A DNA stretch of 64,000 nt, taken from positions 496,001 through 560,000 of the forward strand of contig NW_024881833.1 in NCBI RefSeq assembly GCF_019059575.1, written 5' to 3'. This DNA comes from Amphibalanus amphitrite (lineage: Eukaryota; Arthropoda; Thecostraca; Balanomorpha; Balanidae). The translations under genes were made by a program, and so were the position numbers. The notes under the pieces are model-generated. The model made no database searches, had not been told where the DNA came from, and saw only the letters and a list, made by a program, of their open reading frames with translations. Below are positions 22,701 to 64,000 of this stretch, one piece after another (within the stretch, counting starts at the first letter, position 1; each line of letters starts with the position of its first letter).

Positions 22701-25700
22701 GTGTACGGCCCTCCAGGTATTTAGTGGTTGGTTGCCAACATCACAATAAGCGATCTGCATTGATGAATACGTCTAATGGCTGTTGAAAACCATTGCTGAA
22801 GTGTGTGCACGAACCCTCTTCTCATTTCTATTGAGTCATTTTATAGGAGTGTCTCTGTCATTCAAAGTTATTACATCAAAAGGACATATAGGCTTAGGCT
22901 AACCAACCACCCTTTTGCTGGAGGGCCGTACATACATTGCTCGCGAGTCGTGAGGCTATCGCACGATCGACGGTAGTTCGCAGTTAAGATGGCAATCACC
23001 ACCGGCGCCTGAGTACAAACTATGCCGCATGAGGGAAGTAGATCCAACTGCAGACTCACTGAGTCAGACTGCAACCGCTTGATGCAGCAGCCGTCTGCGC
23101 CTCAATGTAGAGTGTGCCGCATTACTGCTAGTAATTCAATCTGCGGCCGCTAGATGGCAACCGCAATCTGCGCCTCAATGTAGACTGTACCGCATGGCCA
23201 TGAGAAGTTACATATGCGGCCGCCAGATGGCAGTAGCCATCATCGCCTAAATGTGGTATGTGCCGCATTTTAGTAGTAGTTGTATCAATGGCCGCTAGAT
23301 GGCAGAAGCATCCGGCGCCTGAATGTAGACTGTGCCGCATACACGGTAGAAGTTCAATCTGCGGCCGCTAGATGGCAGGAGCATCCAGCGCCTGGATGTA
23401 GACTGTTCCGCATTACTCAGGTGACCGCGGCGAAAGACGAGAGGGCAGACGTTTGCTGCCGACAGGGGCGTCGCCGACGGGGGGGTCGGGGGGGTCGTGA
23501 CCCCCCCACTCTTGAAAACTGGGGGTGTCGACCCCCCCACTTTTTGCGATGTTGAGTATGCTTTTTTAGCTTTTATGTCAGTGAAGCAGGCGTCAGCAAC
23601 ACCAACAAATACATCAGATTCAGAATCTCTTCAAGAGCTCCCTAAAGCTAATTAGCCAATTAGCTAAAGGTCAATTAGCTGTGGGCGGGGAACACCAGCA
23701 CAACAATGTTTTTAAGTAGCCCCCATTCTAGTACCTTTTTATCCCTCAATGGATTGGACGCGCCAAAACTGCCCCGAGCGTTCGTCTGATCGTTTAAAAA
23801 AAAAAATGGTCGCAGTCGATTCGTCGGATCAGTACCCGTAACTACAAAACTACAAACTAGCCTCAGCCCCATGGCTACCATCATACCTAGCTGTACAGTG
23901 CACATGTAGGGGAAAGGGAGTCAGATGGAACCGTCTCGGGCTTTCGCAAAGAAGTCGCGCAAAAAGGAGCCGATTGCAACAAAACTTCCGGTGCGCTCGA
24001 GTTAATCAACTACTTAAAAATAAATCGATATCCCTGATTCAAATAAAGATGACCTTAGTTCACTTTTTCATAACATGCTTTTAATTTATAGGGTAGTTTT
24101 TGGAGCTGATTTTGAACTTAGCGCCCATCTGAGCATTTAAGAAGTAGTTGTGTTGCTTATAACATGTTAGGAAGCAATCGGTGGTGGTCATCCACTTTTA
24201 GGTAGGTACTGGTCGATCTGACCTGACCTGATCTACCCCAAATGCATGGAGTCATCATCTTCGTTCAAAACTAAGATAACATTCGTAATCAGAACCTCGA
24301 AAAACCATCACAACTTACATTCGTTAAACCTAACCTAACCTAACCTAACCTAACCTAACCTAACCTAACCTAACCTAACCTAACCTAACCTAACCTAATT
24401 AAGTTCTAGCAGGTCCCGAGTTTCTCTACTTATTGGCGATGACCTGAGTCCTGCGATGACCCGAAACCTTGTAAATGGGTATCATCGGCTTTCTCTCGTC
24501 ACGGGCAGCATGCTCTTTTTTCCGAAAACCTCTAGAACGATCAGGGGTCGAAAGCATACCTCAGCGTTACTTTAGTAGGTATACGTTATACGTTAGCGAC
24601 TGGGAAACCACCAATAGAAGGGCTACAGTGAAGCAGAAAACATATTCGATAGCTCTTTTAACGCTCTTTCGCTAGCTTCGCGTTAGATTTCATCTCAGGT
24701 CTATGTTTGGCCCATAAGAAGGCAAACAGCTAACTGGACAGATTCTGCCGAAACATCTGCTTTGCAATAACTTTAGATTCCGTGAATTTGTATGGTATGT
24801 ACATAGGTTGTCTTGTCACCACCGTGTTGATCTCTTTGAGACGCGTCACATGAGTTAAAATTTGACCATTCAGAATTAACGTTAAAACGACCTCAGGTCA
24901 ACGTTATGTCCTGATCGAAAAAGGACCTCCTGCTGCATATGAATGGATCCGTGTTGTTGAGCTGAACAGTGAACACCTTCCAGGTGCTGTCATCGCTCTA
25001 CCGCGTCTTCGTCAAAAGTTGTAGAAAAAAAAAAAAATGCTGGTGGCCCTCGATGGACATTTCCACTAATGACCTTTCGAGTCATCACTCGCCATAAGTT
25101 GCACCCTGTCCCTGGCAACGATGAGCTGATTTGTCATGGCTCCAAAGATATTTTGTGTTTCTGACGAACTTTTTCAAAGCAGGAGGCATTCGTACTTTTT
25201 CTAATTTCTCATTATTTTCTAATGATGAGGTCACGTATTTGACCTGCCTTCAGATCATAGATGTAAATCCCCAGTTAGAATCATGAATTGCTGACACGTA
25301 TAACCCCATACATTAGGTATACACTATACAGTGTACCAAATTTCGAAGTTATGGGAGAAAAGCTACAAGAATGACGAGAGGGGAAAGTTTTAAAGAGGCA
25401 TACCGTATAACTGAACTTGACATGGCGACCTGACCAAGTGACCAGTGATAATTTTTACGCAAGTGATGTAGGTAGGTATACCTACCTAATAGGTTATACC
25501 AAATTTGGCGGCGCTGCGCGCCGATTTGTTACACGCGCACACACACACATACGCACGCACAAAACTGGGAAGTGTGGCAAAAAAACCCTACCCATCGGGT
25601 GAAGACTAGAAACCCGACCCCCCCCCCACTCAAAAATCCGTGGCGACGCCCCTGGCTGCCGATTTGCAGTAGCGGCGGAACACCTTCATTTAAGGGGGGG

Positions 25701-39539: not shown

Positions 39540-39756
39540 CTCTCCCTTTGAACGAGGCTACGACGAGGCTGAAGCAGTAAAAATGAAAAGCTGGAGCCGC
39601 AGAGGCGGTAAGCTTGAGCTTTGATCTTCAGTGAGCGACTGCTAACTACGGCACTCCCCTCTGAACCATTCTTTCTCAAGAATCACAGTGAAGCGGTACG
39701 TTAGACACTCATCTCATCTTATGGAAAAAAATAAAGCAAATTTTCTTTTTGAACTG
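39540..39756. other. SRRM1 upstream region
   Basis: Only about 217 bp separate the SRRM1 start codon from the first block of the duplicated repeat region. The start codon has a good context (GGGAGAGATGG). No TATA box was seen. Confidence 0.4.
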
Positions 39757-41090
39757 CCAAGCCTAGGTGATTTATTTTCATAATAAGCATGTCATGCTCT
39801 ATCTATACGTTCATAAAGTTGGCTTCAAATTCGGATTCGGATTCCAGCACCACATTCGTGGAAAAAATGACAAAAACGGACCCCTCAGATTCGATTTAAA
39901 TTAACAGGATAGATAGAGCAGGACATGCTTATTATGAAAATAAATCACCTAGGCTTGGCACCCCCTAGGAACTGAGGAATCTTAGGTCAAAGTTCAAGGT
40001 CATTCTCGGCGGACCCTTTGGATTCTCGTAAAAATTGGTACAAATATAGTCCATGAAGAGCTGATTTCAAAAATATCAGTTTCTTACTTTGGCAAGCAGC
40101 ACGAACTGATATATAGTAGGTCAAAGGTCAGAATCAAGGTCACGTATGTGTAATACAGGAAGTGGAAGTGATCACGTGGCCAGGTGAGAAAGGAGGACCC
40201 CTTAGATTTCAATAATTTTTTGTTTAATGATGCAACCAATGTTGGAAATGCTACTGCTGGTTTTTCTTGTTTTGGCAAGGTCAAACTACGGAGAAATAAC
40301 GGGTCAAAGGTCAAGGTCATTTTTAGCGGACCCTTTCGATTCACATATAAATTTTTATCCCAATACAATTTTTAATGCTGGTTATTATTCTGCGTATTGT
40401 TAGGTTTGGCAGGTCTTAAATTATTTTAAAATATTTAAATAATTTTACCTTCAATTCACCTATCCCAACATGGCTACCGTGCGAGCACCTATCAACACCT
40501 TGATGAAAATAACAAACCGAAAATCTGAGAAACGCGATTTGACCTTGGACGTGCCCCGCGTGCCAGTGCACTGGCTTTAGGGGTGCTGAAGAACTTGATT
40601 TGGTGGGTATAGTGTGTTTTGGTGTGGGTTATTGTAATTTTAATGTATTGCACGTTGCCTGATTTGCGACACAACTTACAAAATTGAAATAGCAGTCGTA
40701 AGTAGTGTCAGTGTCGCAGGTTGACCTTGCCTTGGGGAATACCGAATAGGTCACAGATCATCGGGGTCATTGTCTCGAAATTTACGTGGTACATGTAAAA
40801 TTGTTTGAACTTGAGACCCTGAAAATTTTGTTGCAATCCGTTGATGCTAATGCAAGTTATAGAGCTTGAACTGACAGGTCTATGAGGCCTCCATCCATGC
40901 CAGCGAGGCAGCAAGAGTGTTGAAAATGGTCCATAATATGCAATTTCACATTAATTGGGGCATTCAGGAATTGGAAGTAGCCTAACACCATTCCAGCAAC
41001 TACTGGCGAATCCAGAAAGGCGGTCTTGGACGCTGCAAGGGTCATCCCCCAAAAATTCTCCCGATTCCAAAAACGTGTCCCAGATGACCC
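39757..41090. repeat. N1 block, first copy
   Basis: Single-copy-looking sequence that recurs inverted at 55709-56826 and direct at 57096-58262, with high identity (for example GTTGCTGGAATGGTGTTAGG and its complement). Its outer edge folds back: CAAGCCTAGGTGATTTATTT at 39757 pairs with AAATAAATCACCTAGGCTTG near 39940. It contains several TCAAGGTCA sequences. Short frames present are shared among copies but look like repeat by-products. Confidence 0.85.
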
Positions 41091-43244
41091 CCATGACCTC
41101 CAATGAGCTCTGCGATGACCCCAAGTTGACCTTTTTGACCTGACGTGTCCCAGATGACCTCCATGACCTTCAATTGAGCTCTGATGACTCCAAGCTGACC
41201 TCTGTGACCTGATATGTCCCAGATGACCTCCAATTGAGCTCTTTGATGATCCTAAGCTGACCTCTGTGACCTTATAAGTTATATGTCCCAGATGACCTCC
41301 AATTGAGCTCACTGATGACCCCCAAGTTGACCTCTGTGACCTGACGTGTCCCATATGACCTCTACGATCTCTAAGTGACCTCTCTGATGACCTTAAGCTG
41401 ACCTCTGTGACCTGACGTGTCCCAGATGACCTCCGTGACCTCCAATTGAGCTCTGATGACTCCAAGCTGACCTCTGTGACCTGGTATGTCCCAGATGACC
41501 TCCAATTGAGCTCTTCACTGGCGGATCCAGGGGGGGGCCACCGGGGCCATGGCCCCCCCCCAAAAGCCTGAAAGGGGGGGCCAACATATCTTTTGGCCCC
41601 CCCCAAAACGCTTGAAGAAAAATTAATGTGAGATGGTTGCGTAGTAGATACCTACTAGAATCAGCAGCGTGATTCAATAGCGTAGAGAAAGTCAGGGGTG
41701 CGGAAACTACTTTCAGACTGGGGGGGGGGGGGCACACCATAATAGAGATCAACCTAGGGTCCCCCCAAATCTAGTTTCTCACCGGTTTTAGGCCACTTAT
41801 TTTTCATCTCTTGGCTTTTTCAGCAAAAAAAGAAAACATTTGCAAAAAGGGCGGTATTCCGTCTGAAAGTTGTGGTGGCACCGCCCCCCACTGGTGGATT
41901 CAGGGAGGGGGCCACCGGGGCCATGGCCCCCCAAAAGCCTGAAAGGGGGGCCAACATATCTTTTGGCCCCCCTCCCAAAACGCTTGATGAAAAATTAATG
42001 TGAGAAGGTTGCGTAGTAGATACCTAAAAGTTAGAATCACCGGCGTGATTCAATAGCGTAGAGAAACTCAGGGGTGCGGGAACTACTTTCAGACTGGGGG
42101 GGGGGGGCACACCATAACAGAGATCAACCTAGGGTCCCCCCGAATCTAGTTTTCTCACCGGTTTTGGGCCACTTATTTTTCATCCCTTGGCTTTTTTCAA
42201 CAAAAAAAGAAAACATTTGCAAAAATGGGGTATTCCGTCTGAAAGTTGTGGGGGCACCGCCCCCACGGCCCCATAGTTGGGGGGTGGGCAAGCTGTCCCC
42301 ACTGCCCCGGTTCCCGCGCCTATGGAGAAACTACCTGGTTTACTAGCTTCCTTCATAAAGTGTCGTCATGTCTTGTCGTCACCCGAGAAGGTCTTATTGC
42401 ATACATATCGATTGAACTGTCAAGTTAACAAACTTGCTCTGGCAGCCTGACCTGACATGACCCGGCAATTTTTCATTCACGGAATATGCGCAATAATTTT
42501 TTAGGAACACTCACTGAGTTGGCGTTGAAAAGCTTGTTTTGTTTGGTAATTGTACAAGAAGCATATCAGGGACCTTTTTGTCCCTTCCCGTGAAACGGTA
42601 AAAGACTTATTTCGGTCAGAGCTCAGGCCAATCTCTAAGGGGTCAGTCGGGTCACTTATTTCTTAAAAGGGTCCTTACGGCATCCAAGGACCAATTCCGG
42701 CTTTTGAGTGCACCACATCAGCATTTGATGCTGCGACAGATGGTGAAATATGAATATATGTTACAGGCCGTATGAAAATTGTCCGTTTGCAAACGGCCTG
42801 GCCCAGTCAGGGCATATGAAACAGCCTGAAAACACCGGCCGTTTGCAAACCATGACCTGAAATATCAGACCGTTTGAAAACGGCCTAGTTAGTTTCGACC
42901 TAGCGGATCCAGGGGGGCCACGGGGTCATGCCCCCAAGCCTGAAAGGGGGCAACATGTATTTTGACCCCCCAAAACACTTAAGAAATATGAATGTGAGCA
43001 GTAGCGTAGTAGGTAGAAACTACCGTATCATTAAAAATATGTGAGCTTGAGTGTTGGTCTCGTCTTCACCCAAGCAGTTCTTATTGCATACTTTACCTCT
43101 CGATCGACGCGTGAAGTTATCGTGTAAGTTATCATGAATCCGATCGCGACGAAACTTTAGCACCCTCATGTTGACAAAGTCTGAAAATTTCATGACCCTG
43201 ACCCAAGTGACCTTTGACCTGTGGCCTATTTCTCGAGACTATCC

Positions 43245-43399
43245 GTGCGTTCGGAGAGCATGGAATATTCACCGTCCCCTGGAATATTCCCCGTGCCGCG
43301 TTCGGAGGCGTATCTCTCTGAACGGCCAATCTCCGGGAATGTTCCGCGCGCATGGAGTATTCCACGGATTCCACGTGGAATGTGCCTCTCCGAACGCAC
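43245..43399. mobile_element. 155-bp MITE nested in piggyBac-like sequence
   Basis: GTGCGTTCGGAGAG at the left and CTCTCCGAACGCAC at the right are perfect 14-bp inverted ends. Comparison with 37160-37200 shows the host sequence continuing across the insertion (CTATTTCT..GAG... resumes as CCATGTTTG). Confidence 0.8.
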
Positions 43400-43947
43400 C
43401 ATATGTTTGGCCATGTTTGAGGCCATGTTTGGCCGGAATCGCGATTCCGCGTATGTCGGCTCACATTATCCGCTCGTTTACAGTCTTTTCGTGGTTTAAA
43501 ACGCTCAAACATGTGAAATGATGTTGGTCCCAACCATTGTGGTAGGTGTCAATGTCACCTTAGGGTCAAGTCAGGTCATTGACCTTTGATGACCTCGGTG
43601 CACTTTTCCGAGTTTAACATGTTTCTAGGATAGTTTCGTTTAGCTGATTTTGAATTTAGCATTTAGCAACCATTTGAACATTTACGAAGTAGTTTTGATG
43701 CCTTCGTATCATGTTACGTAGCTGCCAGTGGTAGTCGGACACCTGCTACACGGACGCCCATAAGTACTGGTTGACCTGGTTGACCTGACCTGGCCTGCCC
43801 CGACATGGCCTAAAGGCATGAAGACATCATCTATGATCCAAACTAACATGAAATTCGTGATCAGCACAAAAAAATCTATTACAGCCTTACTTTAGGAGGT
43901 TCTGACAGGCCCTGATTTTCCCGTCTTTTGGGTCTGTGACCTGACCT

Positions 43948-44100
43948 GGGCGGTGTTTCACGGCACGCTGCCAGCGCTGTTGGCACTTTTGGTTTCCATG
44001 GAGACATCAACTAGCCTATACCTACAACACTACCGAAGGTTGACCTTAGCTCGCGGAATGCGCTGGCAGCGGCTGGCAGCGCGACCGTGAAACACCGCCC
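43948..44100. mobile_element. 153-bp MITE nested in piggyBac-like sequence
   Basis: GGGCGGTGTTTCACGG and GCTGCCAGCGC at the left pair with GCGCTGGCAGC and CCGTGAAACACCGCCC at the right. The surrounding sequence aligns with about 37660-37700 of the SRRM1 MITE without this insert. Confidence 0.8.
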
Positions 44101-47100
44101 TGGAAGGTCAAACAATGACCAAGGACCTTAAAATCGGGTATCATCGGCTTCCTCTCGTCACTCACAGGCAACACACTCGTTTTTTTCCGCGAGCTCTAGC
44201 TTGATCAGGGGCCGAACGGCAGAGAGGTTCAACCGACACCTCCCAGCCCGCGAAGGCTGCGCCAAGCACCGACCCGGAGCGGTGGTCGACAAAAGCAATT
44301 TGAAGTGTTTTCAAAGTAATATTAAGGCACGGGTTGAGTGGGCTACCATTTCTCTCTCTATTTTTTTTTTAATTAAAAAAAAAAATTATCGTTTCAGGGC
44401 TGTGACGAAAAATAAGTGGCCTAAATCCGATGAGAAAACAGGATTTGGGGGTACCCTAGGTTTGGCTCCTTGCACGAGTTGGCCCCCCCCAAAACGCAAG
44501 TCTGGATCCGCCAGTGGAGCTCTTTGATGATCCTAAGCTGACCTCTGTGACCTGACGTGTCCCAGATGACCCTCAGTTGAGCTCTGTGATGACCCCAGTC
44601 CCCAAGTTGACCTCTGTGACTTGACGTGTCCCATATGACCTCTGTGACCTCAAGTGACTTCTCTGATGACTCCAAGCTGATCTCTGTGACCTGACATGTC
44701 CCAGATGACCTCCAATTGAGGTCTCTGATAAGCCCAAGCTGACCTCTGTGACCTGACATGTCCCATATGACCTCTGTGACCTCTAAGTGACCTCCCTCAT
44801 GACCCCAAGTTGACCTGTGTGACCTGACGTGTCCCATATGACCTCTGCGACCTCTAAGTGATCGCTCTGATTACCCCAAGCTGACCTCTGTGACCTGACG
44901 TGTCCAAGATGACCCCCATGACCTTTAATCGAGCTCTGTGATGACCCAAGTTGACCTCTGTGACTTGACATGTCCCAGATGACCTCCGTAACCTCCAATT
45001 GGGCTCTTTGATGACCCCAAGCTGACCTCTGTGACCTGACGTGTCCCAGATGACCCTCAATTGAGCTCTGTGATGACCCCAAGTTGACCTCTGTGACTTG
45101 ACGTGTCCCATATGACCTCTGTGACATCAAGTGACCTCTCTGATGACTCCAAGCTGATCTCTGTGACCTGACATGTCCCAGATGACCTCCAATTGAGCTC
45201 TCTGATAACCCCAAGCTGACCTATGTGACCTGACATGTCCCATATGACCTCTGTGACCTCTAAGTGACCTCCCTCATGACCCCAAGCTGACCTGTGTGAC
45301 CTGACGTGTCCCATTAGACCTCTGTGACCTCTAAGTGACCTCTCTCATGACCCCAAGCTGACCTGTGCGACCTGACGTGTCCCAGATGACCTCCGTGACC
45401 TCCAATTGAGCTCTTTGATGATCCTAAGCTGACCTCTGTGACCTGACGTGTCCCAGATGACCCTCAGTTGAGCTCTGTGATGACCCCAAGTTGACCTCTG
45501 TGACTTGACGTGTCCCATATGACCTCTTTGACCTCAAGTGACCTCTCTGATGACTCCAAGCTGATCTCTGTGACCTGGCATGTCCCAGATGACCTCAACT
45601 TGAGGTCTCTGATAAGCCCAAGCTGACCTCTGTGACCTGACATGTCCCATATGACCTCTGTGACCTCTAAGTGACCTCCCTCATGACCCCAAGTTGACCT
45701 GTGTGACCTGACGTGTCCCATATGACCTCTGCGACCTCTAAGTGATCGCTCTGATTACCCCAAGCTGACCTCTGTGACCTGACGTGTCCAAGATGACCCC
45801 CATGACCTTTAATCGAGCTCTGTGATGACCCAAGTTGACCTCTGTGACTTGACATGTCCCAGATGACCTCCGTAACCTCCAATTGGGCTCTTTGATGACC
45901 CCAAGCTGACCTCTGTGACCTGACGTGTCCCAGATGACCCTCAATTGAGCTCTGTGATGACCCCAAGTTGACCTCTGTGACTTGACGTGTCCCATATGAC
46001 CTCTGTGACATCAAGTGACCTCTCTGATGACTCCAAGCTGACCTCTGTGACTTGACATGTCCCATATGACCTCTGTGACCTCTAAGTGACCTCCCTCATG
46101 ACCCCAAGTTGACCTGTGTGACCTGACGTGTCCCATATGACCTCTGCGACCTCTAAGTGATCGCTCTGATTACCCCAAGCTGACCTCTGTGACCTGACGT
46201 GTCCAAGATGACCCCCATGACCTTTAATCGAGCTCTGTGATGACCCAAGTTGATCTCTGTGACCTGACATGTCCCAGATGACCTCCGTAACCTCCAATTG
46301 GGCTATTTGATGACCCCAAGCTGACCTCTGTGACCTGACGTGTCCCAGATGACCCTCAATTGAGCTCTGTGATGACCCCAAGTTGACCTCTGTGACTTGA
46401 CGTGTCCCATATGACCTCTGTGACATCAAGTGACCTCTCTGATGACTCCAAGCTGACCTCTGTGACTTGACATGTCCCATATGACCTCTGTGACCTCTAA
46501 GTGACCTCCCTCATGACCCCAAGTTGACCTGTGTGACCTGACGTGTCCCATATGACCTCTGCGACCTCTAAGTGATCGCTCTGATTACCCCCAAGCTGAC
46601 CTCTGTGACCTGACGTGTCCAAGATGACCCCCATGACCTTTAATCGAGCTCTGTGATGACCCAAGTTGACCTCTGTGACTTGACATGTCCCAGATGACCT
46701 CCGTAACCTCCAATTGGGCTCTTTGATGACCCCAAGCTGACCTCTGTGACCTGACGTGTCTCAGATGACCCTCAATTGAGCTCTGTGATGACCCCAAGTT
46801 GACCTCTGTGACTTGACCTGTCCCATATGACCTCTGTGACATCAAGTGACCTCTCTGATGACTCCAAGCTGATCTCTGTGACCTGACATGTCCCAGATGA
46901 CCTCCAATTGAGCTCTCTGATAACCCCAAGCTGACCTATGTGACCTGACATGTCCCATATGACCTCTGTGACCTCTAAGTGACCTCCCTCATGACCCCAA
47001 GCTGACCTGTGTGACCTGACGTGTCCCAGATGACCTCCGTGACCTCCAATTGAGCTCTGATGACTCCAATCTGACCTCTGTGACCTGATATGTCCCAGAT

Positions 47101-48183
47101 GACCTCCAATTGAGCTCACTGATGACCCCAAGTTGACCTCTGTGACCTGACGTGTCCCATATGACCTCTACGACCTCTAAGTGATCTCTCTGATTACCCC
47201 AAGCTGACCTCTGTGACCTGACGTGTCCAAGATGACCCCCATGACCTTCAATCGAGCTCTGTGATGACCCAAGCTGACCTCTGTGAACTGACGTGTCCCA
47301 TATGACCTCTGCGACCTCTAAGTGACCTCTCTGATGACCTTAAGCTGACCTCTGTGACCTGATGTGTCCCAGATGACCTCCGTGACCTCCAATTGAGCTC
47401 TGATGACTCCAAGCTGACCTCTGTGACCTGATATGTCCTAGATGACCTCCAATTGAGCTCTTTGATGATCCTAAGCTGACCTCTGTAACCTGACGTGTCC
47501 CAGATGACCCTCAGTTGAGCTCTGTGATGACCCCAAGTTGACCTCTGTGACTTGACGTGTCCCATATGACCTCTGTGACCTCAAGTGACATCTCTGATGA
47601 CTCCAACCTGATCTCTGTGACCTGACATGTCCCAGATGACCTCCAATTCAGGTCTCTGATAACCCCAAGTTGACCTCTGTGACTTGACGTGTCCCATATG
47701 ACCTCTATGACCTCAAGTGACCTCTCTGATGACTCCAAGCTGATCTCTGTGACCTGACATGTCCCAGATGACCTCCAATTCAGGTCTCTGATAACCCCAA
47801 GCTGACCTCTGTGACCTGACATGTCCCATGTGACCTCGGTGACCTCTAAGTGACCTCCCTCATGACCCCAAGTTGACCTGTGTGACCTGACGTGTCCCAT
47901 ATGACCTCTGCGACCTCTAAGTGATCTCTCTGATTACCCCAAGCTGACCTCTGTGACCTGACGTGTCCAAGATGACCCCCATGACCTTCAATCGAGCTCT
48001 GTGATGACCCAAGCTGACCTCTGTGACTTGACATGTCCCAGATGACCTCCGTAACCTCCAATTAGGCTCTTTGATGACCCCAAGCTGACCTCTGTGACCT
48101 GACGTGTCCCAGAAGGGCCCTAATTGAGCTCTGCGATGACCATAAGTTGACCTTTGTGACCTGACGTGTCCCAGATGACCCCC

Positions 48184-48290
<107 letters not shown>

Positions 48291-48383
48291 CACGTGCCGG
48301 TGTCGCGGATCCTATAGGCAAATTTTGTACATACCAGTGTTGATCCCAAGTCTCTGACCGGACATGTATTTTCCTTCCCGCAG

Positions 48384-48640
48384 GATGCCGGCGGCGGCGA
48401 CGACAGTGCGCCGGCGCACATCTCTATGGAGGTGGACGGCGACCCGTGGGCGACCGCCGCTGCCGCGGTTTGCTACAGGTGGCCATGGCCACTAATCTGT
48501 TGGAGGAGGCGCCCCCGGCACAGGTCCCAACCGCCGGAGACGCGGCAGAGACGGGGCAGTGGGCTGGCTTCCAGTCGCAATACGACTCGGTCGTGACAGC
48601 GTCTCAGTGCACAGGAGCCGCGGCTGTGGACGATTGTTGA
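48384..48640 (+). CDS. Terminal exon of an unrecognised gene, copy 1
   Basis: A good acceptor (TTTTCCTTCCCGCAG) precedes 48384 and AATAAA lies at 49430, so this looks like a last coding exon with 3' UTR. The frame closing at 48640 reads through the whole exon and ends VAMATNLLEEAPPAQVP...GQWAGFQSQYDS...VDDC. A second frame at the 5' part reads DAGGGDDSAPAHISMEVDGD and stops earlier. Comparison with the copy at 62780 shows changes mostly silent in the first frame downstream of about 48477 (four of six), favouring it there. GQWAGFQ resembles WxxF sorting/adaptin-binding motifs, which is only a hint. Upstream exons are not visible; the satellite would lie in the preceding intron. Confidence 0.5.
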
Positions 48641-49429
48641 GAGATGGCGCGGGGCACCGATAGAAGCTTGTCTGCTGGAGATCAAATCCTGTCTTAGTGC
48701 CGCGTTGCCCCGTGTCCGTGATGATCTTTTAAGGCCGAGCTAGCTACACTAAGCGTGACCGTCCAGGAAACTAGAAAGCACCCACGTGTACTGCGTGTTC
48801 GTGCTCACTGGATTCCCTTGATACCGGCTTCTACGATTATCCATATTTTCCTTGAGCTACCGTATGCCCACGCAAGCGTGATAACGAGCGAGTACCATGC
48901 CGATAATACGATATGTATGAACAAGAATATCTTGTGATTGAAATTGCACAGCCATGCACTACCGAAGTTCATCGCTGAAATTGCATCTAGACCTGTGTAA
49001 TTTCTTACTAACAGTAAGAAGCTCGACAGTAGTTCCGGTAGCAGACAGTATGTAGACTACTTGTGTCTTGTAGACAGTAGAGCTCGTCTTGACGGCGAAA
49101 TGTCATTGTCCAATTTTTCACTGTCCGGCGACCGCGGGATGACATTAACACTGTATGTCACGCCGTGCACATTATGAGCTGACCTTTCCGTGACCTCTCA
49201 CTGGTAGCCCGCTACATAGCCATGAGGGGTCGTTGTGTCTGTCGTTAGGCGTCCCGGCCGGTCCGCCGGTCTCCGGCTGTCTGGGTGACGAACGGCGTCG
49301 GTGGCGACCCCGCTCAGGACGCACCAGCCGCTGGCTCTCCAGCAGACGGCGCACGACCTGGGTGTTACCCGTTACCATTATCCATTATCCATTAGCAATC
49401 CACATGTGCCTATGTCTGTTTTCGTTGTG

Positions 49430-49435
49430 AATAAA
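49430..49435 (+). promoter_or_regulatory. Polyadenylation signal of the E exon, copy 1
   Basis: AATAAA about 790 bp after the exon's stop codon. It is conserved in copy 2 at 63838-63843. Confidence 0.6.
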
Positions 49436-49440
49436 TGTTT

Positions 49441-49831
49441 GCCTTGACAAGCGAGTTGAAACATCTTTCAATCGCCCAGTGTCATTCGATGCAATACCCG
49501 ATTACATGCCGTCGAAAAGCAAAAAGATTATCTCACTCCACGCTGGGGCTCCTAGATTTTCGCGCCTGATGGGGGAGGGGCTGAACCGTGAACCCCCCAG
49601 TGAAGGGGCTGAACAGCCCCCCATCCCCTCGATTTCAACTCAGCTCCTTGACTAGATACGTGTGTTGGTAGTATTAGAACGAGTATTAGAACTCTACCTG
49701 AGACGAGGCCACTTGAAGTACCTGGTGCCCTCACCCTGCTGACCTTAAAAGACACGAGCCTAAACTTTTAGTGTAGCACAGATGCATGCTAAGGCGTGCC
49801 AAAGAACGGCGGCGCTACCGTCTGATCGCTT
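49441..49831. other. Intergenic between convergent E exon and HADHA exon
   Basis: Non-coding. It holds a G-run/C-run pair near 49570-49625 (GGGGGAGGGGCTGAACCG and AGCCCCCCATCCCC). The part to about 49600 is repeated in the second direct copy at the right edge. Confidence 0.5.
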
Positions 49832-50183
49832 TCAAAATGACCTCACTCTATTTCTCGTCAAAAACTGTAGCTTGATCACCAGGGTTCTATATTTACTTTG
49901 AAACTGAACACGCCCAGCGCTGGCACACACGCGGAGCGGCTTCACATGCGTATACACTCGGTCATCACATGTGGGCATTACACGAGGCCCGGCCGAACAG
50001 AACTTGGTGCCGCTAGCGGCCTGGTAGTGCACGGTCAGGCACGGCTCGAAGCCGACGGCAAAGCGCTCCATGTCCTTGACTAGCTGTGCGGGACCGATGC
50101 GGTCCACGAAGCGGAAAGGTCCGCCGGTGAGTGGCGGGAAGCCGAGACCCAACACGCTGGCTTCGAGGTCGCCACGTCGAGAC
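49832..50183 (-). CDS. HADHA: Trifunctional enzyme subunit alpha, last coding exon
   Basis: Mitochondrial enoyl-CoA hydratase/3-hydroxyacyl-CoA dehydrogenase of fatty-acid beta-oxidation; only its C-terminus is here. The exon follows TTTTGACAG at 50184 and encodes GDLEASVLGLGFPPLTGGPF, then RFVDRIGPAQLV and FEPC, which correspond to the family's 'LGLGFPP..GGPFRFVD..GA' and 'F.PC' near the C-terminus. Beyond that the frame runs about 60 residues further than usual before TGA at 49832, so either the tail is extended or a downstream intron was missed. No upstream HADHA exon is recognisable to the right, where sequence soon changes into the inverted repeat arm at 50843. The gene may be cut by the rearrangement, or the rest lies far away. 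Confidence 0.75.
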
Positions 50184-50347
50184 CTGTCAAAATGCGGTGC
50201 ACTTAAGGCCTACAACAGATTTACTGAGGCAACCACAATCACCAGTCAGGAGTCAGGTAAATGGTGGCAATAAGATTCATATAAATAGATTAACAGCCTA
50301 AAATCAGCAAACATCCGTCTCTAGAAAACCAGCAGCACGTGACGTAC

Positions 50348-50750
50348 CGCTAGTAGCCCTGTAGTGCTCGCAGCAGCGTCAAGCTCTCCTGGCGCCGAGA
50401 GCGCAGACGGCGTCACGTGGCTCCCGCAGCTGCCATCCAACACCAGGGGGCAGGCGCCGTCCAGGGCCACCGCCAGCTGCTGCAGTTGGGTCAGCAGCTC
50501 GGCCTCCCAGCGCGGCCGGCGCAGGGTCGGCGGACACAGCGACAGCGCGCCGTCAGCCAGCGGCTCCAGCCGGGTCAGCGCCGGCAGGCCCTCGGGCGGC
50601 AGCTCGCGGCGCAGTCTCCTCGGCGGCGGCACTGAGATCGCGCACGGCGCGCTGCAGCACTGAGAACTGGTGGAACGACGGGTGGAACCAGTCACGCGCG
50701 CGGACGGCACACAGCGCAACGAACTCGCCCGGAAAACGCACACTGTCACA
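50348..50750 (-). CDS. Possible exon(s), unrecognised, GC-rich
   Basis: Two overlapping frames look protein-like: VRFPGEFVALCAVRARDWF (about 50741-50640) and, one base shifted, RRELPPEGLPALTRLEPLAD through LTQLQQLAVALDG to TTGLLA (about 50650-50348), ending at a donor GTACGT. The change of frame means either an unseen intron or a damaged exon. Its phase does not fit the HADHA exon 164 bp downstream, so it may belong to another gene. Family not recognised. Confidence 0.3.
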
Positions 50751-50842
50751 CGGTGCATATCCGTCACTTTATTCGACGGGCGCGTCCTCACATCCGAGAA
50801 CCGACTGGCGTTCACTGTCAGAAGTTCGTGACAGATTAGTGG

Positions 50843-51046
50843 CCATGGCCACCTGTAGCAAACCGCGGCAGCGGCGGTCGCCCACGGGTCGCCGTGTCCA
50901 CCTCCATAGAGATGTGCGCCGGCACACTGTCGTCGCCGCCGCCGGCATCCTGCGGGAAGGAAAAATACATGTCCGGTCAGAGACTGGGGATCAACATTGG
51001 TATGTACAAATTTTGCCTATAGGATCCACGACACCGGCACGTGAAG
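50843..51046 (-). repeat. Inverted partial copy of the E exon block
   Basis: Inverse of 48291-48495: GGCCATGGCCACCTGTAGC at 50843, through the exon and its acceptor, to GCACGTGAAGAG before the (AG)n tract. It carries a 2-base insertion within the coding part (GTGGACACGGCGAC instead of GTGGACGGCGAC) and one other change. It ends abruptly, so it lacks the stop codon and 3' UTR. Confidence 0.9.
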
Positions 51047-55708
<4,662 letters not shown>

Positions 55709-56826
55709 ACACGTTTTTGGAATCGGGAGAATTTTTGGGGGATGACCCTTGCAGCGTCCAAGACCGCCTTTCTGGATTCGCCAGTAGTTGCTGGAATGGT
55801 GTTAGGCTACTTCCAATTCCTGAATGCCCCAATTAATGTGAAATTGCATATTATGGACCATTTTCAACACTCTTGCTGCCTCGCTGGCATGGATGGAGGC
55901 CTCATAGACCTGTCAGTTCAAGCTCTATAACTTGCATTAGCATCAACGGATTGCAACAAAATTTTCAGGGTCTCAAGTTCAAACAATTTTACATGTACCA
56001 CGTAAATTTCGAGACAATGACCCCGATGATCTGTGACCTATTCGGTGTTCCCCAAGGCAAGGTCAACCTGCGACACTGACACTACTTACGACTGCTATTT
56101 CAATTTTGTAAGTTGAGTCGCAAATCAGGCAACGTGCAATTCATTAAAATTACAATAACCCACACCAAAACACACTATACCCACCAAATCAAGTTCTTCA
56201 GCACCCCTAAAGCCAGTGCACTGGCACGGGGCACGTCCAAGGTCAAATCGCGTTTCTCAGATTTTCGGTTTGTTATTTTCATCAAGGTGTTGATAGGTGC
56301 TCGCACGGTAGCCATGTTGGGATAGGTGAATTGAAGGTTAAATTATTTAAATATTTTAAAATAATTTAAGACCTGCCAAACCTAACAATACGCAGAATAA
56401 TAACCAGCATTAAAAATTGTATTAGGATAAAAATTTATATGTGAATCGAAAGGGTCCGCTAAAAATGACCTTGACCTTTGACCCGTCATTTCTCCGTAGT
56501 TTGACCTTGCCAAAACAAGAAAAACCAGCAGTAGCATCTCCAACATTGGTTGCATCATTAAGCAAAAAATTTTAGAAATCTAAGGGGTCCTTCTTTCTCA
56601 CCTGGCCACGTGGTCACTTCCACTTCCTGTATTACACATACGTGACCTTGATTCTGACCTTTGACCTACTATATATCAGTTCGTGCTGCTTGCCAAAGTA
56701 AGAAACTGATATTTTTGAAATCAGCTCTTCATGGACTATAGTTGTACCAATTTTTACGAGAATCCAAAGGGTCCGCCGAGAATGACCTTGAACTTTGACC
56801 TAAGATTCCTCAGTTCCTAGGGGGTA
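55709..56826. repeat. N1 block, inverted copy
   Basis: Inverse of 39962-41070, nearly identical (for example TTCTGGATTCGCCAGTAGTT). It ends at CCTAGGGGG, where the left copy continues into its fold-back edge. Confidence 0.9.
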
Positions 56827-56869
56827 AAGCACTGCAAAATTTGTTGATGCAAATGGTGCTAACCCCGCG

Positions 56870-57095
56870 TACGTTCATAAAGTTGGCTTCAAATTCGGAT
56901 TCGGATTCCAGCACCACACTCGTGGAAAAAATGACAAAAACGGACCCCTCAGAATCGATTTAAATTTACAGGATACGTTCGTTCATAAAGTTGTTCATAA
57001 AGTTGGCTTCAAATTCGGATTCGGATTCCAGCACCACACTCGTGGAAAAAATGACAAAAACGGACCCCTCAGAATCGATTTAAATTTACAGGATA
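56870..57095. repeat. Tandem duplication at the N1/N1 junction
   Basis: GTTCATAAAGTTGGCTTCAA through CGATTTAAATTTACAGGATA occurs twice in a row about 120 bp apart, where the inverted N1 meets the third N1. In the first N1 (39806-39905) it occurs once. Confidence 0.9.
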
Positions 57096-58262
57096 GATAG
57101 AGCATGACATGCTTATTATATAAATAAATCACCTAGGCTTGGCACCCCCTAAGAACTGAGGAATCTTAGGTCAAAGTTCAAGGTCATTTTTGGCGGACCC
57201 TTTGGATTCCCGTAAAAATTGGTACAGCTATAGCTTATGAAGAGCTGATTTCAAAAATATCAGTTTCTTACTTTGGCAAGCAGCATGAACTGATATATAG
57301 TAGGTCAAAGGTCAGAATCAAGGTCACGTATGTGTAATACAGGAAGTGGAAGTGACCACGTGGCCAGGTGAGAAAGGAGGACCCCTTAGATTTCAATAAT
57401 TTTTTGCTCAATGATGCAACCGATGCTGGAGATGCTAATGCTGGTTTTTCTTGTTTTGGCAAGGTCAAACTACGGAGAAATGACGGGTCAAAGGTCAAGG
57501 TCATTTTTAGCGGACCCTTTCGATTCACATATAGATTTTTATCCCAATACAATTTTTGATGCTGGTCATTATTCTACTTATTGTTAGGTTTGGCAGGTCT
57601 TAAATTATTTTAAAATATTTAAATAATCTAACCTCTAATTCACCTATCCCAACATGGCTACCGTGCGAGCACCTATCAAAACCTTGATGAAAATAACAAA
57701 CCGAAAATCTGAGAAACGCGATTTGACCTTGGACGTGCCCCGTGCCAGTGCACTGGCCTTAGGGGTGCTGAAGGACTTGATTTGGTAGGTATAGTGTGTT
57801 TTTGTGTGGGTTATTGTAATTTTAATGTATTGCATGTTGCCTGATTTACGACACAACTTACAAAATTGAAGTAGCAGTCGTAAGTAGTGTCAGTGTCGCA
57901 AGTTGACCTTGCCTTGGGGAATACCGAATAGGTCACAGGTCATTCGGGTCATTGTCTCAAAATTTACGTGGTACGTGTAAAATTGTTTGAGCTTGAGATT
58001 CTGAAAATTTTGTTGCAATCCGTTGATGCTAATGCAAGTTATAGAGCTTGAACTGACAGGTCGTATATGAGGCCTCCATCCACGCCAGCGAGGCAGCAAG
58101 AGTGTTGAAAATGGTCCATAATATGCTATTTCACATTTATTGGGGTATTCAGGAATTGGAAGTAGCCTAACACCATTCCAGCAACTACTGGCGAATCCAG
58201 AAAGGCGGTCTTGGACGTTGCAAGGGTCATCCCCCCAAAATTCTCCTGATTCCAAAAACGTG
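57096..58262. repeat. N1 block, third copy (direct)
   Basis: Same orientation as the first copy (39905-41070), with scattered substitutions and small indels, e.g. GGTATTCAGGAATTGGAAGT against GGCATTCAGGAATTGGAAGT. Confidence 0.9.
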
Positions 58263-61200
58263 TCCCAGTCCCAGATGACCCCCATGACCTCCAATGAGCT
58301 CTGCGATGACCCCAAGTTGACCTTTTTGACCTGACGTGTCCCAGATGACCTCCGTGACCTCCAGTTTAGCTCTGATAACTCTAAGCTGACCTCTGTGACC
58401 TGGCATGTCCCAGATGACCTCCATTTGAGCTCTGTGATGACCCCAACTTGACCTCTGGGACCTCACGTGTCCCATATGACCTCTGTAACCACTAAGTGAT
58501 CTCTCTGATGACCCCAAGCTGAACTCTGTGACCTGACATGTCCCAGAAGACCCCCAGTTGAGCTCTGTGATGACCATAAGTTAACCTCTGTGACCTGATG
58601 TGCCCCCAAGTTGCCCTTTGTGACCGACGTGTCTCAGCTGCCTCAGTGGTCTCCAATTGAGCTCTGTGATGACCCCAAGTTGACATCGGTCTGTGACCTG
58701 ACGTGTCTCATATGACCTCTGTAACCTCTATGTGACCTCTATGATGACCCCAAGTTGACCTCTGTGAGCTGATGTGTCCCAGATGACCCCCATGATCTCC
58801 AACAGAGCTCTGTGATGACCCCAAGTTGACCTCTGTTACCTAATGTGTCCGAGATGACCTCCTTAACCTCCAATTGAGCTCTCTGATGACTCCAAGCTGA
58901 CCTCTGTGACCTTAGGTGTCCCAGATGACCTCCAATTGAGCTCTCTGATAACCCCAAGTTGACCTCTGTGACCTGACATGTCCCATATGACCTCTGTGAC
59001 CTCTAAGTGACCTCTCTGATGACTCCAAGTTGACTTATGTGACCTGACGTGTCTAAGATGACCCCCATGACCTTCAATCGAGCTCTATGATGACCCCAAG
59101 TTGACCTTTTTGACCTGACGTGTCCCAGATGACCTCCGTGACCTCCAGTTTAGCTCTGATAACTCCAAGCTGACCTCTGTGACCTGACGTGTCCCATATG
59201 ACTTCTGTGACCTCTAAGTGACTTCTCTGATGACCCCAAGCTGACCTCTGTGACCTGACGTGTCCCAGATGACCCCCATGACCTTCAATCGAGCTCTGTG
59301 ATGACCCAAGTTGACCTCTGTGACTTGATGTGTCCGAAATAACCTCCGCAACCTCCAATTGAGCTCTTTGATGATCCTAAGCTGACCTCTGTGACCTGAC
59401 GTGTCCCAGATGACCCTCAATTGAGCTCTGTGATGACCCCAAGGCCCAAGTTGACCTCTGTGAGTTGACCTGTCCCATATGACCTCTGTGACCTCAAGTG
59501 ACCTCTCTGGATATTCCAAGCTGATCTCTGTGACATGACATGTCCCAGATGACCTCCAATTGAGCTCTCTGATAACCCCAAGTTGACCTCTCTGACCTGA
59601 CATGTCCCATATGACCTCTGTGACCTCTAAGTGACCTCTCTCATGACCCCAAGCTGACCTATGTGACCTGACGTGTCCCAAATGACCTCCGTGACCTCCA
59701 ATTGAGCTCTGATGACTCCAAGCTGACCTTTGTGACCTGATATGTCCCAGATGACCTCCAATTGAGCTCACTGATGACCCCAAATTGACCTCTGTGACCT
59801 GACGTGTCCAAGATGACCCCCTTGACCTTCAATCGAGCTCTATGATGACCCAAGTTGACCTCTGTGACTTGACTTGTCCGAGATGACCTCCGTAACCTCC
59901 AATTGAGTTCTTTGATGATCCTAAGCTGACCTCTGTGACCTGACGTGTTCCAGATGACCTCCAATTGAGCTCTGTGATGACCCCAAGTTGACCTCTGTGA
60001 CTTCACGTGTCCCATATGACCTCTGTGACCTCTAAGTGACCTCCCTCATGACCCCAAGTTGACCTGTGTGACCTGACGTGTCCCAGATGACCTCCGTGAC
60101 CTCCAGTTGAGATCTGATGACTCCAAGCTGACTTCTGTATCCTGATATGTCCCAGATGACCTCCAATTGAGCTCACTGATGACCCCAAGTTGACCTCTGT
60201 GACCTGACGTGTCCCATATGACCTCTGCGACCTCTAAGTGACCTCTCTGATGACCTTAAGCTGACCTCTGTGACCTGACGTGTCCGAGATGACCTCCGTG
60301 ACCTTCAATTGAGCTCTGATGACTCCAAGCTGACCTCTGTGACCCGATATGTCTCAGATGATCTCCAATTGAGCTCACTGATGACCCCAAGTTGACCTCT
60401 GTGACCTGACGTGTCCCATATGACCTCTGCGACCTCTAAGTAACTTCTCTGATGACCCCAAGCGCACCTCTGTGACCTGACCTGTCCCAGATGACCCCCA
60501 TGACCTTCAATTGAGCTCTGTGTTGACCCAAGTGGACCTCTGTAACTTGATTTGTCCGAGATGCCTCCGTAACCTCCTATTGAGCTCTTTAATGATCCTA
60601 AGCTGACCTTTGTAACCCAGATGACCCTCAATTGAGCTCTGTGATGACCCCAAGTTGACCTCTGTGACTTCACGTGTCCCATATGACCTCTGTGACCTCA
60701 AGTGACCTCTCTGATGACTCCAAGCTGATCTCTGTGACCTGACATGTCCCAGATGACCTCCAATTGAGCTCTCTGATAACCCCAAGTTGACCTCTGTGAC
60801 CTGACATGTCCCATATGACCTCTGTGACCTCTAAGTGACCTCCCTCATGACCCCAAGTTGACCTGTGTGACCTGACGTGTCCCATATGACCTCTGTGACC
60901 TCTAGATGACCTCTCTGATGACCCCAAGCTGACCTCTGTGACCTGACGTGTCCAAGATGACCCCCATGACCTTCAATCGAGCTCTGTGATGACCCAAGTT
61001 GACCTCTGTGACTTGACGTGTCCCAGATGACTTCTGTAACCTCCAATTGAGCTCTTTGATGATCCCAAGCAACCTCTGTGACCTGACGTGTCCCAGAAGA
61101 CCCCCAATTGAGCTCTGTGATGACTATAAGTTAACCCCTGTGTCCTGACGTGCCCCCAAGTTGCCATTGTGACCGACGTGTCTCAGATGACCCCCATGAC

Positions 61201-62591
61201 CTTCAATCGAGCTCTATGGTGACCCCAAGTTGACCTCTGTGACCTGACGTGTCCCATATGACCTCTGCGACCTCTAAGTAACTTCTCTGATGACCCCAAG
61301 CGCACCTCTGTGACCTGACCTGTCCCAGATGACCCCCATGACCTTCAATTGAGCTCTGTGTTGACCCAAGTGGACCTCTGTAACTTGATTTGTCCGAGAT
61401 GCCTCCGTAACCTCCAATTGAGCTCTTTAATGATCCTAAGCTGACCTTTGTAACCCAGATGACCCTCAATTGAGCTCTGTGATGACCCCAAGTTGACCTC
61501 TGTGACTTCACGTGTCCCATATGACCTCTGTGACCTCAAGTGACCTCTCTGATGACTCCAAGCTGATCTCTGTGACCTGACATGTCCCAGATGACCTCCA
61601 ATTGAGCTCTCTGATAACCCCAAGTTGACCTCTGTGACCTGACATGTCCCATATGACCTCTGTGACCTCTAAGTGACCTCCCTCATGACCCCAAGTTGAC
61701 CTGTGTGACCTGACGTGTCCCATATGACCTCTGTGACCTCTAGATGACCTCTCTGATGACCCCAAGCTTACCTCTGTGACCTGACGTGTCCCAGATGACC
61801 CCATGACCTTCAATCGAGCTCTGTGATGACCCAAGTTGACCTCTGTGACTTGACGTGTCCCAGATGACTTCTGTAACCTCCAATTGAGCTCTTTGATGAT
61901 CCCAAGCTGACCTCTGTGACCTGACGTGTCCCAGAAGACCCCCAATTGAGCTCTGTGATGACTATAAGTTGACCCCTGTGTCCTGACGTGCCCCCAAGTT
62001 GCCATTGTGACCGACGTGTCTCAGATGACCCCCATGACCTTCAATCGAGCTCTATGGTGACCCCAACTTGACATCTGTGACCTGACGTGTCCCATATGAC
62101 CTCTGTAACCTCTACGTGACCTCTCTGATGACCCCCAAGCTGACCTCTGTGAGCTGACGTGTCCCAGATGACCCCCATGATCTCCAACAGAGCTCTGTGA
62201 TGACCCCAAGTTGACCTCTGTGACCTGACGTGTCCCATATGACCTCTGCGACCTCTAAGTGACCTCTCTGATGACCCCAAGCTGACCTATGTGACCTGAC
62301 GTGTCCAAGATGACCCCTTGACCTTCAATCGAGCTATATGATGACCCAAGTTGACCTCTGTGACTTGACTTGTCCGAGATGACCTCCGTAACCTCCAATT
62401 GAGTTCTTTGATGATCCTAAGCTGACCTCTGTGACCTGACGTGTTCCAGATGACCTCCAATTGAGCTCTGTGATGACCCCAAGTTGACCTCTGTGACTTG
62501 ACGTGTCCCATATGACCTCTGTGACCTCTAAGTGACCTCTCTGATGACTCCAAGTTGACCTTTGTGACCTGACGTGTCCCAGATGACCCCC

Positions 62592-62592
<1 letters not shown>
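58263..62592. repeat. TGACCT satellite, third array (minus orientation)
   Basis: Same unit as the first array but more diverged, with more frequent variants (TGATGTGTCC, TGACCTTTTTGACC). It contains its own about 840-bp internal duplication (60305-60780 against 61203-61620 are almost identical). There is no transposon insertion. Confidence 0.95.
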
Positions 62593-62680
<88 letters not shown>

Positions 62681-62686
62681 TCTCTT
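62593..62686. repeat. (TC)n tract at third satellite/E boundary
   Basis: About 90 bp of TC with one G interruption, in the same position as the tract at 48187. Confidence 0.97.
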
Positions 62687-62779
62687 CACGTGCCGGTGTC
62701 GCGGATCCTATAGGCAAATTTTGTACATCCAGTGTTGATCCCAAGTCTCTGACCGGACATGTATTTTTCCTTCCCTTAG

Positions 62780-63036
62780 GATGCCGGCGGCGGCGACGAC
62801 AGTGCGCCGGCGCACATCTCTATGGAGGTGGACGGCGACCCGTGGGCGACCGCCGCTGCTGCGGTTTGCTTCAGGTGGCAATGGCCACTAACCTGTTGGA
62901 GGAGACGCCCCCGGCACAGGTCCCAACCGCCGGAGACGCGGCAGAGACCGGGCAGTGGGCTGGCTTCCAGTCGCAATACGACGCGGTCGTGACAGCGTCT
63001 CAGTGCACAGGAGCCGCGGCTGTGGACGATTGTTGA
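62780..63036 (+). CDS. Terminal exon of an unrecognised gene, copy 2
   Basis: Counterpart of 48384-48640, equal in length (257 bp). The acceptor is still AG (CCTTCCCTTAG). In the frame that closes at 63036, differences from copy 1 are Arg to Cys, Ala to Thr and Ser to Ala, plus four silent changes; there is no stop or indel. The polyadenylation signal is kept. Which copy, if either, is the functional last exon cannot be told here. Confidence 0.5.
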
Positions 63037-63837
63037 GAGACGGCGCGGGGCACCGATAGAAGCTTGTCTGCTGGAGATCAAATCCTGTCTGCTGGTGGTA
63101 TATAATGCCGCGTAGCCCCGTGTCCGTGATGATCTTTTAAGGCCGAGCTGGCTACACTAAGCGTGACCGTCCAGGAAACTAGAAAGCACCCACGTGTACT
63201 GCGTGTTCGTGCTCACTGGATTCCCTTGATACCGGCTTCTACGATTATCCAGATTTTCCTTGAGCTACCGTATGCCCACGCAAGCGTGATAACGAGCGAG
63301 TACCATGCCGATAATATGATATGTATGAACAAGAATATCTTGTGATTGAAATTGCACAGCCATGCACTACCGAAGTTCATCGCTGAAATTGCATCTAGAC
63401 CTGTGTAATTTCTTACTAACAGTAAGAAGCTCGACAGTAGTTTCGGTAGCAGAAAGTATGTAGACTACTTGTGTCTTGTAGACAGTAGAGCTCGTCTTGA
63501 CGGCGAAATGTTATTGTCCAATTTTTCACTGTCCGGCGACCGCGGGATGACATTAACACTGTATGTCACGCCGTGCACATTATGAGCTGACCTTTCCGTG
63601 ACCTCTCACTGGTAGCCCGCTACATAGCCATGAGGGGTCGCTGAGTCTGTCGTTAGGCGTCCCGGCCGGTCCGCCGGTCTCCGGCTGTCTGGGTGACGAA
63701 CGGCGTCGGTGGCGACCCCGCTCAGGACGCACCAGCCGCTGGCTCTCCAGCAGACGGCGCACCACCTGGGTGTTACCCGTTGCCATTATCCATTATCCAT
63801 TAGCAATCCACATGTGCCTATGTCTGTTTTCGTTGTG

Positions 63838-63843
63838 AATAAA
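63838..63843 (+). promoter_or_regulatory. Polyadenylation signal of the E exon, copy 2
   Basis: AATAAA at the same relative position as 49430-49435. Confidence 0.6.
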
Positions 63844-64000
63844 TGTTTGCCTTGACAAGCGAGTTGAAACATTTTTCAATCGCCCAGTGTCATTCGATGC
63901 AATGCCCGATCACATGCCGTCGGAAAGGTTATCTCACTCCACGCTGGCCGGGCTCCTAGATTTTCGCGCCTGATGGGGGAGGGGCTGAACCGTGAACCCC

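What the first reader, a model, noticed from the sequence alone, without database searches (positions are those of the whole stretch)
39757..64000. Three-part inverted and direct segmental duplication built from gene end, microsatellite and satellite
The order N1-satellite-TC-E, spacer, inverted E-AG-satellite-N1, then N1-satellite-TC-E again makes a large palindrome-like structure (arms about 9 and 6 kb, spacer about 2.3 kb) followed by a direct copy displaced by about 14.4 kb. Such a design can arise by template switching or breakage-fusion and is unstable. An assembly artefact (haplotig or misjoined inverted contig) must also be considered. Sequence differences between copies (2-base insertion, hAT-like insertion, tandem duplication at 56870) argue that these are real, separate copies.
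Basis: seen in the sequence. Interest (0 to 1): 0.75.

Follow-up and report, generated by a model that had tools for sequence, protein, structure and literature searches.

The report
Two adjacent giant foldback transposon copies
The large mirror-image repeat is not a one-off chromosome rearrangement but two neighbouring copies of a big jumping DNA element whose ends are made of satellite repeats and whose middle carries scraps of host genes; such foldback elements are a known kind, though this family is unusually long and looks recently mobile.

Summary
It is one and a half copies (A, and the left half of B) of a dispersed foldback-type DNA transposon. The order terminus–N1–71-bp satellite–(TC)n–E–centre–E'–(AG)n–satellite–N1'–terminus recurs across this 807-Mb genome. 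Nineteen elements (B and 18 others; 13–32 kb, nested inserts included) have both termini (ACGTTCATAAAGTTGG...). Of these 19, 14 have an exact 9-bp target-site duplication, one an exact 8-bp one, two (C209 and B) 9 bp with one mismatch; one is doubtful and one has none. Control: 0 of 342 mispaired flanks within one mismatch. For 5 of 13 sites tested, the uninterrupted empty site was found. Two pairs of copies have 100% identical outer arms (2.5 kb) at different sites, so movement was recent. A's two arms group with each other, and so do B's, so B is not a copy of A made in place. The centre carries fragments of host sequence: the C-terminus of HADHA and part of an uncharacterised ORF. No transposase was found in what could be read; it is presumably mobilised in trans, most likely by a Mutator/Rehavkus-type enzyme (inferred). 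A new member of a known kind, with unusual features.

The parts
39755..39806 (-). 52-bp inverted copy of A 39909-39960, joined directly to A's left terminus; corresponds to the stretch that should follow the point where A's right arm stops (56825), break points abutting within 1 bp
39807..39960 (+). Element A, left terminal segment T (starts ACGTTCATAAAGTTGG)
39961..41072 (+). Element A, N1 part of left arm
41073..41515 (+). Element A, 71-bp-period satellite, first piece
41516..44516 (.). Nested hAT-type insertion (ends CACTGGCGGATCCAG; 8-bp duplication GAGCTCTT at 41508-41515 and 44517-44524)
   Evidence: ends read by eye
44517..48184 (+). Element A, satellite, second piece
48187..48289 (+). 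(TC)n
48290..48500 (+). E, inner 211 bp of the left arm
48501..50830 (.). Centre of A (an internally deleted form of the about 3.8-kb centre of C323/C628)
49991..50209 (-). Captured fragment encoding the C-terminus of HADHA (trifunctional enzyme alpha)
50403..50804 (-). Fragment shared with a 475-codon open frame at C414 (match C414:255662-256328)
50831..51044 (-). E', inner part of the right arm
51045..51201 (-). (AG)n
51208..55714 (-). Right-arm satellite of A
55715..56825 (-). N1' of A; right arm stops here, 154 bp short of a terminus
56862..56870 (+). Left target-site duplication of B (ACCCCGCGT; right partner ACCCCACGT at C336:567617-567625)
56871..57144 (+). Element B left terminus, with an extra partial copy of T (tandem duplication 56873-57095)
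57145..58257 (+). Element B, N1
58268..62594 (+). Element B, satellite
62595..62685 (+). (TC)n of B
62686..62896 (+). E of B
62897..64000 (.). Centre of B, cut by the window edge; the element continues to C336:567616

Best explanation
A and B are two independent insertions of one apparently non-autonomous foldback-type DNA transposon family. Long inverted arms, made of a unique outer part, a satellite array and a dinucleotide run, flank a centre that holds captured sequence. A transposase supplied in trans, most likely of the Mutator/Rehavkus type because of the 9-bp duplication, cuts at ACGTTC and inserts the element with a 9-bp staggered cut. B landed 45 bp beyond the truncated right end of A, which gives the impression of a three-part segmental duplication. 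Shown: element boundaries, duplications, empty sites, near-identical copies at different sites, captured fragments. Inferred: the kind of transposase, excision followed by partial gap repair, and satellite repeats as transposase-binding or length-variable arm modules.
For: The terminus occurs 45 times in the genome at up to 2 mismatches against 1 for the backward-read control; 38 of the 45 are the two ends of 19 elements. Duplications: 14 of 19 exact 9 bp, 1 exact 8 bp, 2 with one mismatch, 1 doubtful, 1 none; control 0 of 342 (flanks also). Empty sites found for 5 of 13 joined flanks (13 of the 19 elements tried) at 98-100% across the join. C607/C23 and C1588/C900 arms 100% identical (gap columns ignored) with different flanks. 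Arms tree: the two arms of an element group together in 6 of 7 lineages. The satellite rows listed (a capped list; 31 of 314 candidates scored) all lie on contigs that carry the element. The HADHA-like fragment is in 22 element copies.
Against: No transposase was found. Of the 111 MULE-domain matches listed (150 of 204 candidates scored), none is on the 21 contigs that carry the element (by eye), and the 8 MULE loci fetched share no sequence with it. A itself has no duplication and lacks its right terminus. No empty site for the A-B locus was found (40 of 1169 candidates scored). Of the 19 elements, 2 lack a convincing duplication (C1494, C1784).
Confidence: 0.93

Rival explanations
1. Local segmental duplication: an inverted duplication by template switching or breakage-fusion, then a direct copy 14.4 kb away.
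For: Large inverted and direct repeats are really there.
Against: The same unit with the same termini, most with 9-bp duplications, occurs as 18 other elements. Arms of A group together (support 0.999) and arms of B group together (1.0), so B is not a copy of A made in place. B has its own duplication.
Confidence: 0.03
2. Assembly artefact: haplotig or inverted misjoin.
For: No read data could be examined. A's right end is abnormal and no empty A-B site was found.
Against: A and B left arms differ by about 4.5%. The architecture recurs in many contigs with duplications and empty sites. An artefact could at most affect the 45-bp A/B junction or A's permuted ends.
Confidence: 0.04
3. Foldback element of another superfamily (for example P/Galileo-like or an unknown transposase), not Mutator/Rehavkus.
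For: Foldback structure has arisen in several superfamilies (Tm1 paper, passages). No MULE domain among the listed matches on element-bearing contigs.
Against: The 9-bp duplication fits MULE/Rehavkus/FB (passages); Galileo copies are described with 7-bp flanking sequences (passage on chimeric copies).
Confidence: 0.25

Closest known systems
Rehavkus elements (Rehavkus-1_TC of Tribolium; Mutator-related)
   Same: 9-bp duplication; satellite repeats inside the inverted termini (164-bp satellite in a 9.5-kb element); several about 95% identical copies (passages).
   Different: Here 13-32 kb, a 71-bp-period satellite, no transposase found; the PHD-finger transposase of Rehavkus was not searched for.
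Tetris (Drosophila virilis) foldback transposon
   Same: Apparently non-autonomous; inverted arms with internal tandem repeats; variable centre without apparent coding capacity; 8-10-bp duplications (passages).
   Different: No sequence comparison made; this family also has a (TC)n run and an E block, and carries captured gene fragments.
Tm1 (Mutator/Foldback, root-knot nematodes)
   Same: Composite inverted repeats with variable numbers of tandem units, a purine-rich stretch at the inner end of the tandem units, 8-10-bp (mostly 9-bp) duplications in 45 of 53 copies, non-autonomous forms (passages).
   Different: Tm1 units are about 14 bp; a Tm1 form encoding a putative transposase is known; arms here are kilobases long.
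Pack-TIR / Ssk-FB4 (animal Pack-MULE)
   Same: Multicopy inverted-repeat element carrying host gene sequence between FB/MULE-like arms (abstract and passages).
   Different: Here two different fragments in a satellite-armed element; expression was not examined.
Galileo (P superfamily)
   Same: Long, internally repetitive inverted repeats; two-arm and solo-arm copies (passages).
   Different: Duplication length 9 bp here; the Galileo passages mention 7-bp flanks.

Membership tests
Foldback (FB) transposons as a structural class | Long inverted repeats containing tandem repeats, flanking a variable centre | tested here: met
Foldback (FB) transposons as a structural class | Dispersed copies with target-site duplications | tested here: met
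   17 of 19 with an 8-9-bp duplication at no more than one mismatch, control 0 of 342; empty sites 5 of 13
Mutator/MULE superfamily | 8-11-bp, usually 9-bp, duplication | tested here: met
Mutator/MULE superfamily | MULE-type DDE transposase encoded by autonomous members with the same ends | tested here: inconclusive
Rehavkus | Satellite or minisatellite in the termini and 9-bp duplication | tested here: met
   features taken from passages
Rehavkus | PHD-finger transposase | not tested
   no Rehavkus transposase sequence was at hand; no PHD search was run
Pack-MULE / Pack-TIR | Host gene fragments between the inverted repeats, parent present elsewhere | tested here: met
   HADHA C-terminus; for the fragment shared with the C414 open frame the parent's status as a gene is not shown
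Segmental duplication by template switching | Copies unique to the locus and derived from one another | tested here: not met

The most novel reading that the evidence does not exclude
The family carries a record of how foldback elements are made. Three one-ended fragments, probably two events (the first 127-128, 36 and 30 bp of the terminus), sit alone between perfect 9-bp duplications, and A looks like a circularly permuted copy. If these are products of excision with one-sided, aborted gap repair, and of reinsertion of a circle, then gap repair with template switching would explain in one process the arm-to-arm homogenisation, the variable satellite arms and the captured host gene pieces of an element several times larger than usual MULEs.
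Probability: 0.25. Interest if true: 0.6.

Novelty: new member of a known kind. Interest (0 to 1): 0.4.

Why it matters
It turns an alarming 'unstable palindrome' into a datable transposon family. The family is large for its kind: 13-32 kb between termini, nested inserts included, against 1.9-10 kb for complete MULEs in the arthropod survey whose passages were read. It seems recently mobile despite its size, carries satellite DNA and host gene scraps about the genome, and has left short one-ended fragments that make the gap-repair idea of foldback and Pack-TIR formation testable. A survey of 100 animal reference genomes reported no Pack-MULE in them, and described one foldback-type Pack-MULE family in fly populations (passages), so another multicopy animal example would be useful.

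Tried and rejected
Segmental duplication and misassembly: see rivals. A gene in the centre: three frames of the C323/C628 centre (301, 199 and 129 codons) gave no Pfam family above its cut-off, the only row being DUF7330 at E 0.053, below its cut-off. The 129-codon frame is the HADHA piece; the 301-codon frame had only PDB rows at E 1.2 and 1.3 and overlaps the fragment shared with C414. The C414 frame (474 residues searched) has no Pfam row at E up to 1 and no PDB row at E up to 0.1, so calling it a host gene rests only on its long open frame and on being the one listed match to that part of the centre outside element contigs (40 of 153 candidates scored). MULE partner: not found. Terminus search for autonomous copies with another interior: only three short solo fragments. 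Empty site of A plus B: not found. Comparison of C323 with C628 to find their outer ends was inconclusive. One search failed on a wrong reference format. For the tree I left out the C417 and C961 left arms that were.
Full report
Observation. The repeats described are in the sequence at the stated places. Element A reads, left to right: terminus 39807-39960, N1 39961-41072, satellite (period 71) to 48184, (TC)n 48187-48289, E 48290-48500, centre 48501-50830, E' 50831-51044, (AG)n 51045-51201, satellite 51208-55714, N1' 55715-56825. Element B starts at 56871 and is cut by the window edge; on the contig its mirror arm ends at C336:567616. The 'direct third part' is thus the left half of a second full element, centre included.

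It is a dispersed family. A 1-kb probe over satellite, E and centre, a T-N1 probe and a centre probe find the same unit on other contigs (each scored only part of its candidates, so counts are lower bounds). A pattern search with the 20-base terminus (up to 2 mismatches) gives 45 sites against 1 for the pattern read backwards: 38 are the paired ends of 19 elements (B among them), one is A's left end, two are extra terminal copies inside B and C1084, three are solo fragments (C614, C314, C1025) and one (C1, 2 mismatches) is probably chance. Distances between paired ends run from 13.0 kb (C607) to 31.9 kb (C370), nested inserts included (coordinates). C323 and C628 carry a related unit (same satellite, E and centre, partial N1) in which the terminus was not found.

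It transposes. Of the 19 elements, 14 are flanked by an exact 9-bp duplication, C23 by an exact 8-bp one, C209 and B by 9 bp with one mismatch; C1494 has three mismatches in nine (a shared CGCTATT could be read) and C1784 has none. Among 342 mispaired left and right flanks none came within one mismatch and the best had three (sequences also). I joined the flanks of 13 of the 19 elements with one duplication copy and searched the genome: 5 of 13 joined sites (C607, C1588, C900, C134, C1471) are found uninterrupted at 98-100% elsewhere. C607 and C134 give many rows, so they lie in another repeat; C1588 gives one row (C1336, 100%), C900 and C1471 two each. That search scored 40 of 4133 candidates, so the other 8 sites are untested rather than negative. 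C607/C23 and C1588/C900 are 100% identical over both outer arms (about 1.26 kb each, gap columns ignored) yet have different flanks and duplications; C134/C493 are 99.84%. These are recent moves.

A and B are independent elements. In a tree of 23 arms the two arms of one element group together in 6 of the 7 lineages for which I had both (A 0.999, B 1.0, C209 0.987, C540 0.973, C607/C23 0.978, C1588/C900 0.966); C134/C493 is the exception. By identity alone the two arms are each other's closest outside the clone pair in 5 of 7 (not C134, not C1588). A left and right are 98.8% alike, B left and right 99.2%, A and B left arms 95.5%. A local duplication of A to give B would give the opposite. Grouping of arms within elements also suggests that arms are homogenised, or renewed from one another, during repair or transposition (inferred).

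Two oddities. First, A has no right terminus: N1' stops at 56825, and the 52 bp that should follow are found, in the right orientation and with one mismatch, immediately outside A's left terminus (39755-39806), the two break points abutting to within 1 bp. The simplest reading is a circular permutation, that is, a joined-end form opened 154 bp inside and reinserted without a duplication; this is inferred and rests on one copy. Second, three solo fragments start exactly at the terminus and stop after 127-128, 36 and 30 bp, each followed by a perfect 9-bp duplication. C314 and C1025 share the same duplication and lie in similar GC-rich repetitive flanks, so they are probably one event. One-sided, aborted gap repair after excision is the ordinary explanation; one-ended insertion is the alternative.

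Cargo. The centre (3.8 kb between the E blocks in C323; 2.3 kb in A) has no transposase signature in the frames tested. A 129-codon frame matches the C-terminus of fatty acid oxidation complex subunit alpha (best E 2.5e-10) and of mitochondrial trifunctional enzyme subunit alpha, HADHA (E 1.2e-7; the gene name is recalled). The search with 77 residues of it found 28 places: 22 in element copies, then C156 and C297, then four shorter ones at C751, C469, C596 and C973. C297 reads as an ordinary HADHA C-terminus up to its stop, C156 as one with an altered end. Another part (A: 50403-50804) is 85-89% identical to C414:255662-256328, inside a 475-codon open frame of unknown function; residues about 231-462 of that frame are represented, in pieces, in 7 of the 8 centres searched, B having no match. 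This is Pack-MULE-like capture. The title's 'gene end' may be the HADHA piece.

Placement. By structure it is a foldback transposon. By duplication length and satellite-bearing termini it is nearest to Rehavkus and Mutator-type foldbacks: Rehavkus-1_TC (PMC10218199, passages), Rehavkus traits in a study of MULE evolution (PMC6446971, passages), Tm1 (PMC3169594, passages), Tetris (PMC4079207, passages), Ssk-FB4 (PMC8277862, abstract and passages). Membership in the Mutator superfamily is not proven: 111 MULE-domain matches are listed for the genome but none on the 21 contigs that carry the element, and the eight MULE loci fetched share no sequence with it. In the passages read, complete arthropod MULEs span 1.9-10 kb (PMC13359780) and a review says that none of the plant Pack-MULEs of one 2004 study exceeded 7 kb (PMC6431247); this family is longer. 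I made four literature searches on these topics and one on gap repair; only the abstracts and passages named were read.

Verdict: real, ordinary in kind, notable in size, cargo and the traces it leaves.

Noticed in passing
41073-41515, 44508-48184, 51208-55714, 58268-62592: The satellite is dense in AGGTCA/TGACCT: 545 in 12,952 bp (42 per kb, against 2.3 per kb in the rest of the window), with 152 occurrences of two such sites as direct repeats 3 bases apart. This is the half-site of nuclear receptors (recalled); it could equally be a transposase-binding repeat.
   Followed up: partly
C614:236201-236328, C314:536075-536110, C1025:196338-196367 (L067, L103, L104): Solo terminal fragments of 127-128, 36 and 30 bp, each between perfect 9-bp duplications.
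   Followed up: partly
C336:567617 onward: The DNA right of B belongs to a repeat with many 94-97% copies whose matches begin close to B's insertion point.
   Followed up: no
C323:228714-242282, C628:240486-255643: Related elements with the same satellite, E and centre but only partial, 82-98% N1 pieces; terminus not found in them.
   Followed up: partly
24327-24398: (AACCT)14, a perfect interstitial run of an arthropod-type telomere motif (the motif's meaning is recalled).
   Followed up: no
13200-13540: Hexamer array (CCCTAC)57.
   Followed up: no
C973:13412-13818, C596, C469, C751: Four other places hold an 85% identical 407-bp stretch of the HADHA-containing centre, possibly pseudogene copies spread by another repeat.
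   Followed up: partly
C336:565536-566898: An insertion of about 1.36 kb interrupts N1' of element B.
   Followed up: no
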